Source of the DNA: Dermacentor variabilis
Taxonomy: Eukaryota > Arthropoda > Arachnida > Ixodida > Ixodidae
Assembly (NCBI RefSeq): GCF_050947875.1
Contig: NC_134574.1
Coordinates: forward strand, 155,274,051 to 155,338,050
Direction: 5' to 3'
Length of the DNA: 64,000 nucleotides
Positions within the stretch are counted from its first letter, which is position 1; the number at the start of each line of letters is the position of its first letter. A program made the translations under genes and the position numbers. The notes beneath the pieces are model-generated. The model saw nothing but the letters and a program-made list of their open reading frames with translations, had not been told where the DNA came from and did no database searches. Below are positions 52,027 through 62,911 of the stretch, in pieces.

Positions 52027-52030
52027 GCAC
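52027..52030. other. Target-site duplication GCAC (left)
   Basis: Equal to 59003-59006, directly after the other LTR. This fixes the ends of the element. Confidence 0.8.
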
Positions 52031-52202
52031 TGTTTGGATCCGACTGCTGGTACGATCTGTTGGGAACTCGGCGCTGACGCCCGTGGTTGTACCTGGGTCG
52101 CAAGCCCCAAGGGTAGCGTTGGCCTGGCGGCCTGGGGTACAACTGCAAGCATCCGAAGGTCCCGGCAAAGCATGAGTCGACAGGTAACAACGAAACAACT
52201 TG

Positions 52203-52208
52203 TTTATT
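52203..52208 (-). terminator. LTR poly(A) signal AATAAA
   Basis: TTTATT on the plus strand, about 110 bases downstream of the TATA box in the element's sense direction. The same signal is at 58371-58376 in the other LTR. Confidence 0.55.
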
Positions 52209-52461
52209 TTAACATCGCAAAGAGTTGGCGGTCAGGTTTGACCGAAGTAGAGAGACGGGAGAGCACTTCACTCAACGGAAGAAATCGGAGCCCTCCTCTG
52301 GCGTCCGGGGGCAGCTGTTTTTATACTCTCGCAGTTGAGGGCAAGAAGGAACCCCTAAAAAGACGAGCACGTGAATGTACAATGGGCTAATGGTGACGCA
52401 CACTGTCGTAGCGATGCCGTAGCACCATGTCGTGGCGCTGCGCAAGATCTCGTAGCAACTG

Positions 52462-52702
52462 GTCGTGGCGCTGCGCAGCACACTGTCGTGGCGCTGCGCA
52501 GCACACTGTCGTGGCGCTGCCGGTCGGACACAATGACTGTAACGAGAAGATGGTCCCTGCTTTGGCTTCGCCTGTTTCGGGCACAATGACTGGAACGAGA
52601 TCCCTGCTTTGGCATCGCCTGTTTCGGGCCCAATAACTGGAATGAGATCCCTGCTTTGGCATCGCCTGTTTCGGGCACAATGACTGGAACGAAATCCCTA
52701 GG
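52462..52702. repeat. Two tandem arrays inside the LTR
   Basis: A 23-bp unit starting GTCGTGGCGCTGCGCAGCAC repeats about three times (52462-52524). A 47-bp unit containing CAATGACTGGAACGAGATCC repeats about 3.5 times (52531-52702). The same arrays occur in the other LTR from 58630. They lie in U3, upstream of the TATA box. Confidence 0.8.
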
Positions 52703-52834
52703 CGGTCGCATCGCCGCAGACGCGCCTGGAAACACCTGGCGATGAGTGTTGTGGTGACGACGATCGGGCCAAAATGTCCGCCGCCCCGCCGCCGTCGCGC
52801 CGGCAAAACCACGTGTCGCAGGCGAAACGCAACA

Positions 52835-53320
52835 GACCGCCCCGCCGGGGAAAGGAGATCCCGATGGACAGGGGACTGCATCCGCTGTCCGGAGGGATGT
52901 CGCTCGATGATGCTCATAACCGAAGTCGGGCGTCCCTTGACGTTTCTTGAGCGCAGCGCACAGAGAAGGCCTCGTTCTCTCGTTCAGGTTCGCACGGGAC
53001 ACTGCAAAGTGACTTCGGGAGAGTTCACATTTTTGTTCTCGTTCCCGGCAAGCGTTAGAACTACGCTGAAAACTCAACCGCTCAGTCAGCAAGCACGGCA
53101 CAACCCTCACTAAGCCCTGCCAGGCTCTTTCCCCTTTTTATACCACTGCCTAGTTCCTTACAGTAGTCTAGCATCACTCAGAACGCGTCCACAAATTGAA
53201 AAATTGCACTAGAAAGCATATCATCACTTTGAAACACTAAACAAAAGCAATATGTTAAAAAAAATCCTGCCTCAGGAAGAAAAACATCAGTAACAAACAA
53301 TTTTGAGGCTGATTCCTACG
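52835..53320 (-). other. 3' noncoding part of the retrotransposon
   Basis: 486 bp between the gag-pol stop and the 3' LTR. Next to the LTR the minus strand reads GGCGGGGCGGTC, a G-rich but imperfect polypurine tract. Antisense frames here are shadows. Confidence 0.6.
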
Positions 53321-56300
53321 TTAGGGGCTTCGACTTAAGCCATCGGCGTTACCGTTGAGACTCCCCTTTTTGTAACGCACCTCAAAGGAATATTGTTGTA
53401 AAGCGAGGCTCCAGCGCAGGAGGCGACCATTTTTGGGAGAGATGGTCTGCAGCCATTGGAGAGGGCAGTGATCCGTCTCAATGATAAACCTCGAGCCGGC
53501 TAGATAGCATGACAATTTCTGAACGGCCCACACGAGACATGCACACTCTTTCTCGGTGGCGCTATACGCCTGCTCACGACTGGTCAGCTTACGACTAGCA
53601 TACAGGACGGGGTGTTCTACTTCTCCATTTTCCCGTTGGCACAGTACAACGCCCATGCCTCGCTCACTAGCATCGCACTGAACAATGAACCCTTTTGTAT
53701 AGTCTGGCGATCGTAGCACAGGCTGGCTTGTTAGGGCACTCTTTAGGGCGCTAAAAGCTCTTTCCTTTGTCTCGTCCCAGACGACTGTTTGAGGCTCTGT
53801 CTTTCTTAGAGCATCCGTCAGGGGAGCCGCGATATCAGAGTACCTAGGGATGTACCTCTGATAGTAGCCGGCGACACCCAAGAACGACCGAATATCGGTC
53901 TTTGTGCGCGGCTGCGGAAAGTCTCGCACAGCGGCCACTTTTATTTCAGAGGGGCGGCGACGACCCTGACCAATCACGTGACCGAGGTAGACAACCTCGG
54001 CCTGTGCTAACTGGCACTTAGGAGCCTTGACTGTCAAGCCCGCTTCGCGCAGGCGGGTTAGCACCGCCCGCAAGTGTGCCATATGCTCAGACCAGGATGC
54101 GGAGAATATCGCTACGTCGTCTAGATACGGTAAAGCGAATTCTTGCTGTCCCCGCAACACTTTATCCATGAGGCTTGAAAAACAGTATGGCGCGTTCTTC
54201 AAACCAAAACTCAACACTTTAGGACGGAATGTTCCCATTGGTGAAATGAACGCCGCATACCTACTAGCCTCTTCTGTAAGTGGAACCTGCCAATAACCCC
54301 TGACAAGATCTAGGGTGGAAATAAACTGAGCGCTACTAACTTTCTCAAGGCGCTCCTCGATGTTAGGGATCGGATAAATTTGATCCTTAGTGATGGAATT
54401 AAGCCTGCGGTAGTCGACGCAAGGACGAGGTTCCTTGCCCGGTACCTCAACTAAAATCAAAGGGGAGGTATAATCACTCTCACCTGCCTCAATAACACCG
54501 AGCTGTAGCATTTTCTTTACCTCAGCCTCCATAATATCGCTCTGGCGGGGTGACACCCGATACGCCTTGGATCGTACTGGCTCTGTGGAGGTAAGTTCTA
54601 TATCATGAGTAAGTACAGAAGTCCTACCAGGCCTCTCAGAGAACAGACCTTGAAACTCTTGTAATAGCTGGTGTAGTTCGGTTTTCTGCTCAGGCGACAG
54701 CGGTGCTTTACTGATAAGGTCACTAATGACTTGACCGGTGTCTTCCCTGTTCGTCACTGAGCCTAGTCCTGGAAGCTCGACCGGAAGCTCTTCAGGAACG
54801 TTTACCATCATGCACCCCACTGCTTCCCTTTTTCTATAAGGTTTGAGCAGATTACAGTGGTAAACTTGCTGTGCTTTCCGCTTTCCTGGCAGACTTACCA
54901 CGTAGTTAACGTCCGACAGTTTCTGAACAGTTCGTGCTGGGCCCTCCCACTGCACGTCTAGTTTGTTGTTTAGCGATGTGCGCAATATCATGACCTCATC
55001 GCCAACCTCAAAACGACGGGCCCTGGCTGTCCGATCATAATAAACCTTGGCCCTCTGCTGGGCCTTTGTCATTGCTTCACCTGACAACTCCTGTGCCCTT
55101 CTTAAGCGTCCGAGGAGCTTAAGCACGTACTCCACCACGACTGGGTCGTCGCCCCTACCTTCCCATGATTCTCGAAGCATGCGAAGCGGAGATCGAAGCG
55201 AGCGACCGTACACCAGTTCAGCTGGCGAAAACCCCGTAGCCGCATGCGGCGCGGTCCTTAAAGCAAACATCACCCCAGGCAGACACAGCTCCCAGTCAGT
55301 TTGATGTTCAAAACACAAGGCTCTCAACACGCGTTTCATGACGGAGTGGAGCTTCTCAACGGAATTCGACTGTGGGTGGTACACTGAGCTGTGTAGCAGC
55401 TTTACCCCACACCTTTCGAGAAAAGTTGTCGTCAAAGCGCTAGTAAACACTGTGCCCTGATCTGATTGAATTTCTGCAGGAAAACCAACTCGCGCAAATA
55501 TGGACAGTAGTGCATTAACTATCTCAACTGAGCTGAGTTCTTTAAGCGGCACTGCTTCAGGGAACTTTGTCGCTGGGCAGATCACAGTCAAAATGTGTCT
55601 GTACCCCGTGGCTGTTACCGGCAGAGGTCCCACAGTATCAATAACGAGCCGTCTAAAAGGCTCCGTTATGATAGGTACCAATTTCAACGGCGCCCTTGAT
55701 TTGTCCCCTGGTTTGCCCACCCGCTGACAAGTGTCACATGTCCTCACGAAATGGTCTGCGTCCCGAAAACACCCTGGCCAATAGTACTCTTGCAAGAGAC
55801 GGTCCTTAGTTTTCTTAACTCCTAGGTGTCCGGACCACGAACCCCCGTGTGACAAGCGCAACAGATCCTGACGATAGCATTGAGGCACGACCAGCTGATC
55901 GAACTCCACTCCTCTGCGGTCTAGATACTTCCGGTACAGGACTCCACCTCTTTCCACAAAACGCGCAGTTTTCCTGGCGATACCTTCGTTGACATTGCAG
56001 CGAATGTTTTCTAGGCTGCCATCCTTCTTTTGCTCGGCTATCAAAGCCGACCGGCTGACTTTTAGCAACCTATCAAGTCCGTCTGACGTAGGCGCGATGA
56101 GCAAATCAGTAGATAGCTCTTCTAACTTTCCCGAATCGGGATTTTCCTCTCCAGTATCTGGCGCCTTCAACGCTACAGACTCAATTTTATTCTGTTCGGG
56201 CGTGCTCTGAATATCAGCTTGCTGCGCCTCTGACCCTTTTTCATTGTTCGCCAACGTCGGCCCCGCAACTACCGCCTTTGCAGCGAGCTCCCGAACCTTC

Positions 56301-57844
56301 GATCTGGTTAAGGCCTGAACACTAGCTTCACCAAACAAAAGCCCCTTCTCGCGCAGGAGGTGATCGGACCTGTTTGAAAATAGGTACGGGTACTGGGGTG
56401 GCAGCATAGATGACACTGCCGCCTCCGTCTCAAGCGCTCCGAAAGGTCCTTCAATAAGCACTTTTGCTACCGGCAGACACACGCTATGAGCTTCCACGGC
56501 TTGCTTGATCCACGCGCACTCGCCCGTGAACATATGGGGTTCTACGTAAGATGGGTGAACTACATCCATCGTAGCTGCGGAATCGCGCAGCACTCGGCAC
56601 TCTTTCCCGTTCACGAGGAGGTCTCGCATGTAAGGCTCGAGAAGCTTCATGTTCTCGTCAGTGCTGCCTAGTGAAAAAAACACAACTTTTGGTGTTGTTT
56701 CCGGACACTGCGCCGAAAAGTGACCCGGCTTCTGGCACGTATAACAAACGCCCGCTCGCCTCATCTCGAACCGCTTTCTGCGTTCGGCTTCGGCTGCCGT
56801 CTCTTTACGTTTGGTCGGATTGCTTTCACTCGCATCCTCACTACGCGTGTCCCCCTTAAATCTCATGGGCGTGAACTTCGGCCTCTCAAACTTCGAGCCA
56901 AATTCACCCTTTTGACCGTCCTTAGCTCCGCGAGCTCGACGCGTCACAAACTCCTCGGCTAGCTCAGCGGCTCTAGCCACCGTACTCACGTCTGGCCTAT
57001 CCAAGACCCAGTATCGCACGTTCTCCGGTAACCGACTATAAAACTGTTCTAGCCCGAAACACTGCAGAACTTTATCGTGGTCACCAAACGCTTTCTCTTC
57101 TTTGAGCCACTCCTGCATGTTCGACATAAGCCTATACGCAAACTCTGTATATGACTCACTTCTGCCTTTCTCATTTTCCCGAAACTTCCGACGGAACGCT
57201 TCCGCAGACAGCCGGTACTTTTTTAGCAGACTTGATTTTACTTTGTCGAAATCCTCTGCTTCCTCTCTATCCAAGCGAGCGACTACGTCGGCCGCCTCGC
57301 CGGGTAACAAAGTGAGCAAGCGCTGTGGCCATGTTTCCCGAGAGAACCCCTGCTTCTCGCACGTTCGCTCAAAGTTAACCAGGAACAAACCAATGTCCTC
57401 TCCAAGCTTAAACGGCCGCATCAGGTCAGTCATTTTGAACAATACTCGTTCTCCTGCACCGTGTGCCTGACTTCCATTACGAGCGCGTTCCATTTCTACC
57501 TCAAGACGCTTCATTTCCAAAGCGTGTTGACGCTCTTCTTTTTCTTTCTCTGCTTTACGTTCACGCTCTTCTTTCTCTTTCTGTTCTTTAAGTTCGCGCT
57601 CATATTTCTCTTTTTGCTCTTTAAGTTCGCGCTCATGTTTCTCTTTTTGCTCTTTAAGTTCGCGCTCCTGTCTTTTTGACCTCTCCTCAATAGTCTCAAG
57701 GCATTCCGACAGCTCGTCATCCTCAGCCTCTAACTCAAGAATAGCCTTTAGCAGTTCAGGTTTTCTGAGTTTGTCCGAGACATCCAGACCCAACTCTCTT
57801 GCAAGCTCCAACAATTTCGGTTTGCGCAACGACTTCAAATCCAT
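53321..57844 (-). CDS. Retrotransposon gag-pol polyprotein, 1507 aa
   Basis: Residues 1-40 look like a SAP motif. Residues 50-120 form a charged coiled coil with ERELKEQKEK-type decapeptide repeats. Residues 140-302 resemble the capsid fold from which SCAN domains derive. A zinc knuckle (CYTCQKPGHFSAQC) lies at 367-380. The protease has RDSAAT at 420-425 and a late LPPQYPYL block. Integrase (660-1005) has its HHCC finger (H666, H673, C703, C706) and catalytic residues in VIDTVGP (D736), SDQG (D795) and NSVEK (E830), then a GPY/F-like end (WEGPARTVQ). Reverse transcriptase follows (1085-1270; YLDD at 1240-1243), then RNase H (1385-1507; CDAS, ATEKE, TDHCPLQW, NADGLSR). It is one uninterrupted frame with ATG in the context GCCATGG. 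It is the catalytic and structural protein set of the element. Confidence 0.95.
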   Translation of the reverse strand: MDLKSLRKPKLLELARELGLDVSDKLRKPELLKAILELEAEDDELSECLETIEERSKRQERELKEQKEKHERELKEQKEKYERELKEQKEKEERERKAEKEKEERQHALEMKRLEVEMERARNGSQAHGAGERVLFKMTDLMRPFKLGEDIGLFLVNFERTCEKQGFSRETWPQRLLTLLPGEAADVVARLDREEAEDFDKVKSSLLKKYRLSAEAFRRKFRENEKGRSESYTEFAYRLMSNMQEWLKEEKAFGDHDKVLQCFGLEQFYSRLPENVRYWVLDRPDVSTVARAAELAEEFVTRRARGAKDGQKGEFGSKFERPKFTPMRFKGDTRSEDASESNPTKRKETAAEAERRKRFEMRRAGVCYTCQKPGHFSAQCPETTPKVVFFSLGSTDENMKLLEPYMRDLLVNGKECRVLRDSAATMDVVHPSYVEPHMFTGECAWIKQAVEAHSVCLPVAKVLIEGPFGALETEAAVSSMLPPQYPYLFSNRSDHLLREKGLLFGEASVQALTRSKVRELAAKAVVAGPTLANNEKGSEAQQADIQSTPEQNKIESVALKAPDTGEENPDSGKLEELSTDLLIAPTSDGLDRLLKVSRSALIAEQKKDGSLENIRCNVNEGIARKTARFVERGGVLYRKYLDRRGVEFDQLVVPQCYRQDLLRLSHGGSWSGHLGVKKTKDRLLQEYYWPGCFRDADHFVRTCDTCQRVGKPGDKSRAPLKLVPIITEPFRRLVIDTVGPLPVTATGYRHILTVICPATKFPEAVPLKELSSVEIVNALLSIFARVGFPAEIQSDQGTVFTSALTTTFLERCGVKLLHSSVYHPQSNSVEKLHSVMKRVLRALCFEHQTDWELCLPGVMFALRTAPHAATGFSPAELVYGRSLRSPLRMLRESWEGRGDDPVVVEYVLKLLGRLRRAQELSGEAMTKAQQRAKVYYDRTARARRFEVGDEVMILRTSLNNKLDVQWEGPARTVQKLSDVNYVVSLPGKRKAQQVYHCNLLKPYRKREAVGCMMVNVPEELPVELPGLGSVTNREDTGQVISDLISKAPLSPEQKTELHQLLQEFQGLFSERPGRTSVLTHDIELTSTEPVRSKAYRVSPRQSDIMEAEVKKMLQLGVIEAGESDYTSPLILVEVPGKEPRPCVDYRRLNSITKDQIYPIPNIEERLEKVSSAQFISTLDLVRGYWQVPLTEEASRYAAFISPMGTFRPKVLSFGLKNAPYCFSSLMDKVLRGQQEFALPYLDDVAIFSASWSEHMAHLRAVLTRLREAGLTVKAPKCQLAQAEVVYLGHVIGQGRRRPSEIKVAAVRDFPQPRTKTDIRSFLGVAGYYQRYIPRYSDIAAPLTDALRKTEPQTVVWDETKERAFSALKSALTSQPVLRSPDYTKGFIVQCDASERGMGVVLCQRENGEVEHPVLYASRKLTSREQAYSATEKECACLVWAVQKLSCYLAGSRFIIETDHCPLQWLQTISPKNGRLLRWSLALQQYSFEVRYKKGSLNGNADGLSRSP
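57585..57672 (-). repeat. 30-bp tandem repeat in gag
   Basis: Three in-frame copies encode ERELKEQKEK with H or Y at the junctions (residues about 60-90). The repeat lengthens the coiled coil of gag. Confidence 0.8.
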
Positions 57845-58178
57845 GGCTGCTCTGAATGCTGCTTTTTCTACTGCTTACTATTGTCTTGCCGCAAACTAAC
57901 CCGGCAGCAACGACAACCACAATTACCAGCTCTGTTTCTGACACTAACAAAAGCCTGGCAAAGCTCAGTAGAAGAAAGTCCCGCACTCACCAAACCTCGC
58001 AGGCAGGAATTCCGCGCAGTCGTTCCGCTGCAGGCAACCAGTCGTCACACAGGGCTCGTTGCACTGCTCCCGGATCGTCGTTGAGCTGCTCAGCATACTG
58101 TCAACTGCATCTCTTTGCTGCTGGCCTCCGTTGTCGTGATCTCGCCGCTGGCAGACCGTTGTTTGAAGTCGTAGGCGA
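57845..58178 (-). other. Leader of the retrotransposon
   Basis: About 335 bp between the primer site and the gag start. GATCTC.CCGCTGGCA occurs twice (near 58138 and 58178), so the primer-site region is partly duplicated. Confidence 0.6.
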
Positions 58179-58196
58179 TCTCACCGCTGGCAACCA
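58179..58196 (-). other. Primer binding site of the Gmr1-like element
   Basis: On the minus strand TGGTTGCCAGCGGTGAGA starts two bases inside the 5' LTR, so the complementary tRNA would end in CCA. I cannot name the tRNA. The two-base spacing equals that in the element at 2662-5216. Confidence 0.6.
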
Positions 58197-58198
58197 GA

Positions 58199-59002
58199 TG
58201 TTTGGATCGCGACACTGGAGCGATCCGTTGGGAACTCGGCGCTGACGCCCGTGGTTGTACCTGGGTCGCAAGCCCCAAGGGTAGCGTTGGCCTGGCGGCC
58301 TGGGGTACAACTGCAAGCATCCGAAGGTCCCGGCAAAGCATGAGTCGACAGGTAACAACGAAACAACTTGTTTATTTTAACATCGCAAAGAGTTGGCGGT
58401 CAGGTTTGACCGAAGTAGAGAGACGGGAGAGCACTTCACTCAACGGAAGAAATCGGAGCCCTCCTCTGGCGTCCGGGGGCAGCTGTTTTTATACTCTCGC
58501 AGTTGAGGGCAAGAAGGAACCCCTAAAAAGACGAGCACGTGAATGTACAATGGGCTAATGGTGACGCACACTGTCGTAGCGATGCCGTAGCACCATGTCG
58601 TGGCGCTGCGCAAGATCTCGTAGCAACTGGTCGTGGCGCTGCGCAGCACACTGTCGTGGCGCTGCGCAGCACACTGTCGTGGCGCTGCCGGTCGGACACA
58701 ATGACTGTAACGAGAAGATGGTCCCTGCTTTGGCTTCGCCTGTTTCGGGCACAATGACTGGAACGAGATCCCTGCTTTGGCATCGCCTGTTTCGGGCCCA
58801 ATAACTGGAATGAGATCCCTGCTTTGGCATCGCCTGTTTCGGGCACAATGACTGGAACGAAATCCCTAGGCGGTCGCATCGCCGCAGACGCGCCTGGAAA
58901 CACCTGGCGATGAGTGTTGTGGTGACGACGATCGGGCCAAAATGTCCGCCGCCCCGCCGCCGTCGCGCCGGCAAAACCACGTGTCGCAGGCGAAACGCAA
59001 CA
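58199..59002 (-). repeat. Right LTR (5' LTR of the element)
   Basis: 804 bp. Drives transcription on the minus strand from a TATA box at 58486-58493. Followed by the second GCAC at 59003-59006. Confidence 0.93.
58486..58493 (-). promoter_or_regulatory. TATA box of the 5' LTR
   Basis: The plus-strand TTTTTATA reads TATAAAAA on the minus strand. AATAAA lies about 110 bases downstream at 58371-58376, which bounds a short R region. Confidence 0.55.
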
Positions 59003-59112
59003 GCACCTATGTAGCTGTTCCCGGCATGTGCTATTCATGCTCTCCGCGAAGTGCGTCTGCTGGGGTGGGACAATGCACAAACACCGGTGCAGGTATACCT
59101 ATAGAATACTTT

Positions 59113-59275: not shown

Positions 59276-62239
59276 TAAATCCCACAATTCTTTTTATTTT
59301 CACACCGAGGCTGCTGCATAGCCGCTCTGGAGCGGTGGCGTGCTCGGCATCAAAAACTTAAAATTCTCAAATTTTTGTTTTTAAACTTAGTTACCAATGA
59401 CTATAAAAATAAAAATTGGCCTGCGTTTACCTCTTTTGAACAAACAACATAATTTCGCATTTTTTCTTTCTTTTTTAGTCTTTTAATTCGTCATTGTTAC
59501 TCATGGGGTGTTTCAACGGCCCCAAGCTAGCTAACAGCTACAGACGTATATCACGGGTGCAGTGGCGGAAGCTGACTGTTTTGCTGCAACGCAGCTCAAT
59601 TGAGCGGGTGCTGTCACTACGCGATAACACGAGCTAGTGTGTAAGGAGTTTACTGCAGGCGTTATACGATTGTATAACGACGTGCGATTGTGCGTGATGT
59701 ACACTAAGAGCATGTAAATTGTAAATATGTTACGGGATGCAATGAACTTCCCAATTTTAGCAGTCAGCAAAGATATTTTTAGTACTTTCGAAGGATGTGA
59801 GAGATTGCTTATACGGCTTAGATGTTTGTGATGTTACAGTTACTCAGAATGTCGGTGCTACATAAAGACCGCTAGCCCAGGGCAATAGTTTCTTGAACGT
59901 GCACGCAATGCCTTTATTCACGCCGCATATTCCACGCACCGTGAACATAATTTGCGCATTCCAAAAATGTATCACAAGAAAGCCGTAATAGCAACCAGTA
60001 GCGAAAAATACGCGCGCGCTGGTGAGATAAATATTAATGACAGGTGGTGAGGTTAGCCGAACAAATGGCTTGGAATGCTACTACGCGTTTAATATATAAC
60101 AGGAGATCAAAGGACGAGAGAGGGGAAAACAAATGTACTCGCATCCATTCTCGCAAAAACTCTGGAAGGGGCAGCAGTGAGCGTCATGAAATGACCGAAG
60201 TGGAAGCTTTAAAAGGCACCGTCAATAACCAAAATTTTATACATTTTTGGTGCAGTCAAAATGGCAGAGATAGATAACATACTGTTTGTTGACGGCGCTC
60301 TACTCGGCACCGGCTTGCTCGACTCGGCTCCGCCGTTTCATCACGCCGGTGCCGAGTCGGGTGAACAGTGAATTTGCTTACGCGACATTGCAGCATGTGC
60401 TTCTGAAAACTTTTTCCACCGTTCACTATAGGCCGTGCGTTACCGCGCTGCTGTTGGCAGGCTTTTAAAGTTAGAGCGCTGCATGGTTGGCTATATAGAC
60501 AACTTGCGCTGAAGTTTTTCGGGGCGAAGGCACCGCTAGAACAAGCAGTCTAAGAAACCGTGAAATGGAAATGGGAGGGACGCGATAGACATTCGTGGGG
60601 AGGAGGGGAGGGGAGGGCGTGACATCTGCGATTGCTTGATCACGAGACGAGTGTCCAAGATCTGAAAATGCCCATGTGTGCGTGCTCCTTAGGACTCTGA
60701 ATACCTTGCGATTGAAGAGCGAACGTTCGCGAGCTTCAGCTCGGCAAAGCTTCGTGCGCTTAACCGTTCAACACTAAGACTATAGCGTGGATAAAACATG
60801 GATCGTTGTCGTTTTTTAGAGTGCCAATTCGTGAGGCGAGCGTCGGCGTTCCCGGCGTACAGCGAAAGATGAGAGCGAAACCGGCGCACAGCCAACGCCA
60901 CCTAAACGCAGCAGGTGATGAAAATAGCGGCGAGAGAGAAGAGGCGGGAGGAGGAAAGCGGAGAGGAGGGTGCAGAGGAACGGTGAGGCGGAAAGCAGAG
61001 GAGGGTATGGAAAGCGTGAGACGAAAAACGTAGCGCGCGTCGTCTGCGGAGGTTTGCCGGCGGCGGCTTCTGTGAATCGCGCCCACGCTTCACCCACGGG
61101 CTGGGCCCACGTGCTGGCTCTCGCGATCTCCATATTAGCGAGACTTTGGCGCCACACTTTACTCCGTTTGCAATTTGCCGCACGAGACCGGTTGTCCACG
61201 CCAGCCAATATATCGCGAAATGAAAACGAGCTGCACTCAAGTTAGGGAGTATCGTAATTGTCGGTGACTTCTTTAAGGCCGTCTTTAATGCGTCCCTAAA
61301 TACCGGTGACCGAGACACTGTGGTGATGAATGAAAGCGTTGTATAGCGCCCTCTGGCTGTTGCAAGTGTATATACCTATAGTAACCAACCTTTTTCTACA
61401 AAATAACCGGAAATAGAATATTGAACGAATAAGCAAGCAGTGAACACTCCAAGCAACACATTTAGTCTACATCATCCGTAATTCACTGACTTTCTGTTGA
61501 AAGAGTAGTAAACAGAAACTTACCGCATTCTGTTCGATGGCGGTTGCTTCATAACTTGATGCACGCTCATGTACTATCTCACGTCTGATCTCTGATGATC
61601 TCAAAACTTGTACCAGACTTCGTCGAAAGTACTATGTTCTTGAGTGATCTCACTTTTCATGCATGTCACATTTTTCACTTGACGCTGCTTTCTATATTTG
61701 TTACACATACACGTTGAAGACATGGAAATTTGTTCAACGTATTCAAGAGTTCCGTATATAGCACCCGCTCTTGAGGACGGGCCGGCTACGGCGTGACGCA
61801 GAGTACTCGTCTTGTTGAGTAGGGATTTATCCGTTCCAGTGGAGTGGCGTCACAGTGGTATGCGCTTTCGATGACCGAGCAGGCCCATATGCGTGATGTC
61901 ATTTCTGTAAATACGCGGAGTACCTTCTGCAGTGACTAAGGCAGCTGGCTCCCGTGAGCATCTCCTGATCCATGTTGTATCTTTATATTTTCTAAGGCGC
62001 CAAAAAGTACACACATAGGAGGTTCTCGCACCACAAATTGTTTGTTCAGTAGTGCAGAATGTCGGCGCTAGCACAGTACTCGGTCAAGTCTCTTCACCAA
62101 GCTGCTGTCATATTGCCGCGGACACGTCCGTGAGTTGTGTTCAGACCGCTGTTGTTGCGGGCGTCAAGCTGTTCAGGTGGCGCGGCTCAAACGACCCGTG
62201 TGTGCGCGTCGCCATCTACCGCAGGAAGCAATTGTATGC

Positions 62240-62388
62240 TGATCGATCATCATACCTTGCTGGTGAAGCAGTGCACTGACACGGACACAGAGAAGACGCA
62301 CAAGACGACACTCGCTGCTTCTCTGTGTGTGTCTTCTCTGTGACCGTGTCAGTGCGCTGCTTCACCAGCAAGGTATGATGATCGATCA
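62240..62388. repeat. 149-bp hairpin followed by CACCAACTAGCCC
   Basis: The arms TGATCGATCATCATACCTTG and CAAGGTATGATGATCGATCA continue for about 60 bases (through CAGTGCACTGACACGG), with a loop of about 35 bases. CACCAACTAGCCC overlaps the end at 62387-62399, as after the hairpin at 44581-44715. Confidence 0.8.
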
Positions 62389-62911
62389 CCAACTAGCCCA
62401 ACTTTCCACATTACTGTATGCTGATTAGCGCTGGCCCTCGCCAGTCAGGGGTTCAGTCCCGGTAAGTGCGTCAGCAGTAGACTGCTTCGATTACATTCGA
62501 AAGCGCGATGGCCTTCGCAAGGCGTCTCTCGCTAAAGGAGTGATAATCGCTTCTCGGCATTTTGTCAAAGATCAAGGTATATGCACTGCCCACATGATCG
62601 CAGTCGGACCGTGACGTTTTATAAAATTTCGCTTCGTTACATCCAAGAAAAAAAGAAAGCTGGACGACAAGATCAGAAACGCCGGTGCAAGAGAAAGACG
62701 AAGTTGCCGCAATATTTATTCACAAACAGCAGCGAAGACCGTTTCAACGAGTCTTCACCGCTATGTATACGAGTCGACAATCGATACCACGACCCTTCAA
62801 TTGTAAAATGACGCATCGTGAACTATCTTTTTGGCGTTCGACTTACGAAACGGGGGTGCTATTCTGGAGACCGTCAAATCCCGCCACAACGTCGGATCCG
62901 CCATCATAAGA

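What the first reader, a model, noticed from the sequence alone, without database searches (positions are those of the whole stretch)
53321..57844. Ty3/gypsy-type retrotransposon with Ty1/copia-like domain order in a tick-like genome
In one open frame the integrase (HHCC finger near residue 666, catalytic residues near 736, 795 and 830) precedes reverse transcriptase (YLDD near 1240) and RNase H. The sequences are of Ty3/gypsy type. Established knowledge: this arrangement defines the Gmr1-like group, described mainly from deuterostomes. An intact chelicerate copy would widen the known range and could imply horizontal transfer or old descent.
Basis: partly seen in the sequence, partly recalled or inferred. 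Interest (0 to 1): 0.88.

Follow-up and report, generated by a model that had tools for sequence, protein, structure and literature searches.

The report
Tick retrotransposon with reordered enzyme domains
This tick genome carries many young, intact copies of a jumping gene whose enzymes are encoded in an unusual order; it belongs to a known kind (Gmr1-like) whose presence in ticks and spiders seems little described.

Summary
It lies in a complete LTR element, 52031-59002, with 804-bp TG...CA LTRs and a 4-bp target duplication. The same 2.48-Gb genome holds at least 31 full-length open copies; 21 of 21 examined have matching 4-bp duplications, so it is no misassembly. In separate integrase and RT-RNase H trees (60 chosen rows) the integrase-first proteins form one clade, apart from the conventional Ty3/gypsy rows. 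Best filed as Gmr1-like, though Gmr1 itself could not be put in the trees. Gmr1-like elements were already printed from crustaceans (2013) and an annelid (2021); only the chelicerate range looks new. Arthropod members share a D,D-34-E integrase. Noticed besides: the two LTRs of one copy are nearly identical except in the last 36 nt of U5, where 12 of 21 copies differ.

The parts
52027..52030 (.). target-site duplication (GCAC), copy beyond the 3' LTR
   Evidence: identical 4 bp at 59003-59006; 21 of 21 copies examined have a matching 4-bp pair
52031..52834 (-). 3' LTR, 804 bp, TG...CA
   Evidence: self-alignment with 58199-59002; all differences lie in 52041-52058
52835..52859 (-). presumed polypurine-tract region just before the 3' LTR (weak, GGCGGGGCGGTC at its end)
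   Evidence: position only; the 25-nt stretch is the same in 16 of 21 copies and has one T-to-C change in the other 5
53321..57844 (-). single Gag-Pol frame, 1507 aa
   Evidence: no stop in 31 of 31 scored genome loci
53390..53779 (-). RNase H, residues 1356-1485
   Evidence: PF17919 E 3.4e-34, PF17917 E 7.3e-36
53972..54436 (-). reverse transcriptase, residues 1137-1291, YLDD at 1240
   Evidence: PF00078, E 3.4e-29
54839..55888 (-). integrase, residues 653-1002: HHCC finger, D736, D795, 34 residues, E830, C-terminal domain
   Evidence: PF17921, PF00665, PF22938
56573..56584 (-). protease active-site motif, residues 421-424, DSAA instead of D[ST]GA
   Evidence: DSAA in 29 of 84 aligned sequences over 1250 aa, the window included
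56699..56749 (-). CCHC zinc knuckle, residues 366-382
   Evidence: PF00098, E 1.5e-5
56936..57202 (-). SCAN-like capsid region, residues 215-303
   Evidence: PF02023, E 1.9e-13
57526..57690 (-). 33-nt tandem repeats in gag (charged stretch)
58179..58196 (-). primer-binding-site region (TGG..., 2 nt after the 5' LTR); imperfect match to tRNA-Leu(AAG)
58199..59002 (-). 5' LTR, 804 bp, TG...CA
59003..59006 (.). target-site duplication (GCAC), copy before the 5' LTR

Best explanation
A complete, recently inserted LTR retrotransposon of the Gmr1-like kind (Ty3/gypsy enzymes, Ty1/copia-like order) in a tick. Shown by sequence: LTRs, target duplication, one fused Gag-Pol frame with its catalytic residues, many open copies, purifying selection on the frame. 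Inferred: the LTR transcript is translated as one Gag-Pol polyprotein, cut by its own aspartic protease, packaged, reverse transcribed from a tRNA primer (tRNA-Leu(AAG) is the best candidate) and integrated by its integrase with 4-bp staggered cuts. The order IN-RT-RH was most likely inherited from one old rearrangement shared with the other integrase-first elements, not made in this copy.
For: Domain order. LTRs and duplication (21 of 21 copies). At least 31 full-length open loci. 21 frames of 1507 codons, 98.5-99.9% identical in DNA, normalised nonsynonymous/synonymous ratio 0.17 (105 synonymous, 55 nonsynonymous single changes; 6 codon variants with more than one change left out). Order in relatives: all 118 first-set sequences in which both domains were found (of 121) are IN-RT; all 239 conventional ones (of 243) are RT-IN. 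One integrase-first clade in both trees, 100/100 and 100/99. SCAN in Gag; in frogs SCAN was found 'in over 50% of Gmr elements only' (PMC4131045, passages).
Against: Protease motif is DSAA, not D[ST]G, though 29 of 84 aligned sequences share it. The window's primer site fits tRNA-Leu(AAG) imperfectly; only 3 of 21 copies fit it over 18 nt. The polypurine tract is weak. No expression or transposition data. Named Gmr1 was in no tree.
Confidence: 0.94

Rival explanations
1. A recombinant: an ordinary Ty3/gypsy integrase brought in front of an RT from another ordinary clade, independently in ticks.
For: The order is unusual for Ty3/gypsy, and members of one LTR-retrotransposon family can recombine often (PMC5668417, title and passages). 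Two other rows do change place between the trees with starred support: P0119 and P0103, so exchange within the integrase-first group, or long-branch error, is possible there.
Against: The window's RT-RNase H and integrase fall in the same nested clades in both trees (Amblyomma; plus Haemaphysalis; eight ticks; 19 arthropod-type rows; all 35 integrase-first rows). The conventional rows come from two searches and one genome only, so not every ordinary clade was sampled.
Confidence: 0.03
2. An assembly artefact or nested insertion that only looks like a reordered pol.
For: The element is repetitive.
Against: 31 loci on 11 contigs carry the same continuous frame; 21 of 21 examined have their own 4-bp duplications; the order is also in database proteins of other ticks, spiders and vertebrates.
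Confidence: 0.01
3. Recent horizontal transfer into ticks from a vertebrate or other deuterostome.
For: Ticks feed on vertebrates, and fish, frog and turtle have integrase-first proteins.
Against: Listed deuterostome hits are 41-45% identical, tick hits 56-98%. Arthropod-type rows form a clade (100/99, 100/100) with eight tick rows and the spider rows apart in it. Every named host among the 83 D,D-34-E rows is an arthropod; every named deuterostome row with readable residues has 35. A beetle (Onthophagus) inside the arthropod set leaves transfer among arthropods open.
Confidence: 0.03
4. A domesticated host gene derived from such an element.
For: One long frame under purifying selection.
Against: LTRs, duplications and many near-identical dispersed copies are those of a mobile element.
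Confidence: 0.01

Closest known systems
Gmr1 clade of Ty3/gypsy (Goodwin and Poulter 2002; title seen in the reference list of PMC6238403; paper not read)
   Same: integrase upstream of RT, Ty3/gypsy-type enzymes; SCAN-like Gag as in frog Gmr elements
   Different: tick host; arthropod members have 34, not 35, residues between the second D and the E of the integrase, and some tick, beetle and unnamed members have DSAA in the protease
Crustacean Gmr1-like elements: GyRex4, Gychoro2, GyMaja1, GyLiva4; also GyRex5 (PMC3587641, passages)
   Same: arthropod hosts, Gmr1-like; said there to be the first in protostomes
   Different: GyRex4 (RT/RH) and GyRex5 (integrase) were separate pieces whose order was inferred from a sea-bream element; how complete the other three are was not seen; none was compared here by sequence
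Annelid LGF3 family of Lamellibrachia (PMC8220671, passages)
   Same: placed in the Gmr1 clade in RH, RT and INT trees
   Different: annelid host; not compared by sequence here
Conventional tick Ty3/gypsy elements (L029-L035; in Ixodes Mag, CsRn1, Squirrel, Toxo, PMC4748124 passages)
   Same: same superfamily; TG..CA LTRs and 4-bp duplications as stated for Ixodes
   Different: RT before integrase; separate clade in both trees (L029 and L030 tested)
Ty3 of yeast (PDB 7q5b; P0241)
   Same: homologous RT-RNase H and integrase
   Different: RT-RH-IN order; in the outgroup of both trees

Membership tests
Gmr1-like Ty3/gypsy | integrase lies upstream of RT in pol | tested here: met
Gmr1-like Ty3/gypsy | RT and integrase are of Ty3/gypsy type | tested here: met
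Gmr1-like Ty3/gypsy | RT and integrase both group with other integrase-first elements, incl. fish, frog and turtle | tested here: met
   one clade in both trees, 35 of 60 rows
Gmr1-like Ty3/gypsy | grouping with the named reference Gmr1 of Atlantic cod | not testable with these tools
   no protein of that name among the 120 listed in each; no eukaryote genome collection is searchable
Gmr1-like Ty3/gypsy | SCAN-like region in Gag (common, not universal) | tested here: met
   PF02023 E 1.9e-13; PMC4131045
LTR retrotransposon | two LTRs, TG...CA, flanked by a short target duplication | tested here: met
LTR retrotransposon | tRNA-complementary primer site after the 5' LTR | tested here: inconclusive
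   3 of 21 copies match the tRNA-Leu(AAG) 3' end plus CCA over 18 nt; the window copy only imperfectly
Ty1/copia | copia-type RT and integrase | tested here: not met
   the listed Pfam and structure hits and the trees are of Ty3/gypsy or retroviral type; no copia rows were in the trees
errantivirus / retrovirus | envelope gene after pol | tested here: inconclusive
   486 nt between the stop of the frame and the 3' LTR; the only long frame there (52355-53110, 251 aa) runs into the LTR; not searched for env similarity

The most novel reading that the evidence does not exclude
The two LTRs of a new copy do not share one template at the end of U5. In this family the last ~30 nt of the 5' LTR, next to the primer site, and of the 3' LTR would come from different RNA molecules of one particle in about half of the insertions (14 of 26 copies examined differ there): after copying the primer site, minus-strand synthesis would switch to the still undegraded U5 of the co-packaged RNA. 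If so, each young copy records whether two different genomes were packaged together, and LTR dating must leave the U5 tip out.
Probability: 0.3. Interest if true: 0.6.

Novelty: new member of a known kind. Interest (0 to 1): 0.43.

Why it matters
It gives a complete, multi-copy picture of an integrase-first Ty3/gypsy element in a chelicerate, the first that I could find (searches in the report), and shows with two enzymes, and for the arthropod branch with one shared deletion, that the odd order is best read as one old inherited state across animals rather than repeated reshuffling. The young copies make strand transfer in such elements readable from genome data. SCAN domains of vertebrate transcription factors have been proposed to come from retrotransposon Gag (PMC11011659, passage; Emerson and Thomas 2011 known only by its title there, not held), so arthropod relatives with SCAN-like Gag are useful comparisons.

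Tried and rejected
Viral contigs (IMG/VR) were scanned twice for RT relatives: none confirmed. LTR ends at TGTTGGG were considered and dropped, because similarity runs on to TGTTTGGATC and that boundary gives matching duplications. A tRNA whose 3' end fits the commonest primer-site version was sought by one exact pattern: 0 matches. Three loci with the tRNA-Leu 3' motif gave no tRNA by ARAGORN or by Rfam at gathering scores; two others gave tRNA-Leu(AAG). Linkage of U5 tips with the leader, as a test of the two-RNA model: Mantel tests not significant for either tip; a post-hoc split by primer-site version links the 3' tip (0 of 12 against 5 of 9 unusual tips, P 0.006) but not the 5' tip (1 of 12 against 3 of 9, P 0.27), and of five later copies one (L043) goes against that link (these five were not put into the test). 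RNA folding of two tip variants was unremarkable (z -0.72 and -1.23). The host species could not be named: the nearest protein is Amblyomma americanum, 96% identical in the integrase tree's columns and 98% in the RT-RNase H tree's. Script broke off with an error after 17 copies and was redone.

Full report
What is there. The finding's coordinates are a single open frame on the minus strand. Pfam places, in order, SCAN, CCHC, integrase finger, integrase core, integrase C-terminus, RT and RNase H; a Rho_N match at the start is below its curated cut-off. A protease motif DSAA stands at 421. The frame sits in a full element, 52031-59002 on the minus strand, 6972 bp, with 804-bp LTRs that begin TG and end CA and are flanked by GCAC. 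Between the frame and the 3' LTR I saw no further gene among frames of 90 codons or more, except one that runs into the LTR; it was not searched for similarity.

Copies. The window lies in a held genome of 2,477,337,136 bases in 605 contigs. Thirty-one loci were scored with this protein, all full length, without stops, 99-100% identical; they lie on 11 contigs. Of 103183 first-look candidates only 31 were scored, so this is a lower bound, and copies with broken frames were not counted. I fetched 20 of the 30 other loci with flanks. All 21, window included, have two LTRs and an identical 4-bp duplication. In the 21 frames of 1507 codons, single-base codon changes are 105 synonymous and 55 nonsynonymous against 3145 and 9779 opportunities, ratio 0.17, with 6 codon variants of more than one change left out; pairwise DNA identity of the frame is 98.5-99.9%. 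Outside the last 36 nt, 15 of 21 copies have no difference between their LTRs. These are young insertions of a family kept functional, but the copies were picked by the search for high-scoring open frames. I know of no calibrated substitution rate for ticks and give no age.

Relatives. The protein search scored 7986 candidates, found 507 at E <= 0.001 and listed 120. Named hosts are ticks (Amblyomma, Haemaphysalis, Ixodes, Ornithodoros, Rhipicephalus), spiders (Stegodyphus, Argiope, Uloborus, Oedothorax, Trichonephila), a beetle (Onthophagus), a frog, sea turtles, several fish, a sea urchin and one EukProt entry whose identifier I take for the sponge Ephydatia muelleri (recalled; no call names it). 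Many entries have no host. By blastp with pieces of the window protein, 110 of the 120 run IN-RT-RH, 7 have IN before RT without a found RNase H, 1 has IN before RNase H without RT, and 2 lack IN. Conventional elements came from two further searches, 120 listed of 5357 and 120 of 6244, and three loci of this genome. By phmmer both domains were found in 118 of 121 of the first set, all IN-RT, and in 122 of 123 and 117 of 120 of the others, all RT-IN.

Trees. I chose 60 of the 364 sequences by hand, for named hosts and spread: 35 integrase-first, 12 chelicerate-type conventional, 13 fungal/plant conventional. Integrase (244 columns) and RT-RNase H (420 columns) were treated apart. In both, each of the three groups is one side of a branch; the integrase-first branch has 100/100 and 100/99. 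Inside it 19 arthropod-type rows form a clade (100/99 and 100/100), eight tick rows a clade (95/90 and 97/93), and spiders with unnamed rows another (100/99 and 99/96). The beetle pair moves between spiders and a tick-like row with weak support. Against full agreement: two unnamed rows change place with starred support. P0119 is sister to the arthropod rows in the integrase tree and outside all others in the RT tree, where it is the one long branch; P0103 goes with the arthropod, frog and turtle rows in the first and with sponge-like rows in the second. The fish rows also move. So exchange within the integrase-first group is not excluded elsewhere, but nothing of the kind touches the window's element. 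The root was put on the fungal/plant rows by choice, and the conventional sample does not cover all known clades.

A marker. Of 114 integrase-first rows aligned, 111 have readable D and E: in 83 they are separated by 34 residues, in 28 by 35. All named hosts with 34 are ticks, spiders and the beetle; named hosts with 35 are fish, frog, turtles and the entry taken for a sponge. The sea-urchin row reads DEE with 35 and was not counted; one Ixodes and one Trichonephila row lack the E. Of 238 conventional rows 235 have both residues, 234 of them with 35 and one (P0360) with 34. So one missing residue in the motif around the catalytic E marks the arthropod branch. DSAA at the protease is narrower: 29 of 84 aligned sequences, in ticks, the beetle and unnamed rows, while other ticks have DSGA.

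Known or not. Passages seen: PMC3587641 calls crustacean elements the first Gmr1-like ones in protostomes; PMC8220671 places an annelid family in Gmr1; PMC8556966 counts Gmr1 among clades present in several phyla and did not find it in its own annelids; PMC2774666 and PMC6238403 give the order as the mark of the Gmr1 lineage; PMC4748124 reports Mag, CsRn1, Squirrel and Toxo in Ixodes, with no Gmr1 in the passages seen, supplements not read. Listings that showed no description of Gmr1-like elements in ticks or spiders: searches (40 of 53 papers listed; 20 of 45; 20 of 1130; 20 of 45; 10 of 10; 20 of 21), in an open-access library. Repbase and GyDB were not available, so an earlier description cannot be excluded. 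Proteins of this kind from Ixodes, Ornithodoros and other ticks are in databases, mostly as uncharacterized proteins.

How it works. The likely cycle is the ordinary one of LTR retrotransposons, with one fused polyprotein. Integrase before RT should change only the cleavage products; this is inference. In 20 of 21 copies TGG stands two nt after the 5' LTR (L025 has GGG). In 3 of 21 the site matches the last 15 nt of tRNA-Leu(AAG) genes of this genome plus CCA (added by recall); in the others, window included, it has an extra base and one or two changes.

A side observation worth more work. The two LTRs of one copy agree almost everywhere: 12 differences (substitutions or gap runs) in 15971 aligned columns outside the last 36 nt, but 54 in 756 columns within them; 12 of 21 copies differ there, 6 of 21 elsewhere. 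Between copies the rates are 10.5% in the tip and 1.8% elsewhere. The drop is sharp: no within-copy difference from 37 to 200 nt before the end in these 21, where copies differ from each other by 0.4-1.9%. Tips are identical in 9 of 21 copies against 1.7 expected at random, so many copies do fit one template. In five further copies, ends only, 2 of 5 differ, with 14 differing columns in 180 of the tip and 2 in 810 of the rest. In four copies of a conventional family of this genome 3 of 35 differing columns fall in the last 36 of about 421 nt, as chance gives (counted by hand; the strand was read from the primer site). By the textbook scheme both U5 ends come from one minus-strand strong-stop DNA and should be equal at insertion. 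A second template for one of them, error at an imperfect hairpin, or short conversion after insertion could explain it. For the first: several tips recur in both positions in different copies. Against it or for error: some tips occur once only, 5' tips are more varied (15 kinds in 21) than 3' tips (11), and the leader tests were indecisive. LTR asymmetry of another kind, mostly deletions, is known for HIV-1 (PMC9278108, passages). One search on U5 and strand transfer (20 of 26 papers listed) showed no title or abstract with this pattern.

Verdict. A real, intact, young Gmr1-like element, correctly read. The interest lies in its chelicerate range, the probable single origin of the order, and the unexplained U5 tips; the element itself is a new member of a known kind.

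Noticed in passing
window 52041-52058 against 58209-58226; L009-L028, L041-L050: The two LTRs of a copy are nearly identical except in the last 36 nt of U5, where 12 of 21 copies and 2 of 5 later ones differ. Four copies of a conventional family of the same genome do not show this.
   Followed up: partly
window 54839-55888 and relatives P0001-P0120: Arthropod integrase-first proteins have 34, not 35, residues between the second D and the E of the integrase core (83 of 111 readable integrase-first rows; 1 of 235 conventional rows).
   Followed up: yes
window 56573-56584: Protease motif DSAA in place of D[ST]GA, shared by 29 of 84 aligned sequences, so kept rather than broken.
   Followed up: partly
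window 58179-58196: The primer site exists in three main versions among 21 copies (12, 6 and 3); only the rarest fits tRNA-Leu(AAG) exactly, though copying of the primer should tend to restore the match.
   Followed up: partly
G000 C3 about 79.66-79.74 Mb: Many matches to a tRNA-Leu 3' end, often about 749 bp apart or multiples of it: it looks like a tandem array; one unit (L039) is a tRNA-Leu(AAG) gene by ARAGORN.
   Followed up: partly
P0052, P0088, P0048: Two dung-beetle (Onthophagus taurus) proteins and an unnamed near relative belong to the arthropod set beside ticks and spiders; transfer among arthropods or wider insect presence is possible.
   Followed up: no
P0119, P0103: These two unnamed integrase-first rows change place between the integrase and RT trees with starred support; exchange within the group or tree error.
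   Followed up: no
window 62237-62391: Inverted repeat, 66-nt arms 94% complementary with 23 nt between.
   Followed up: no
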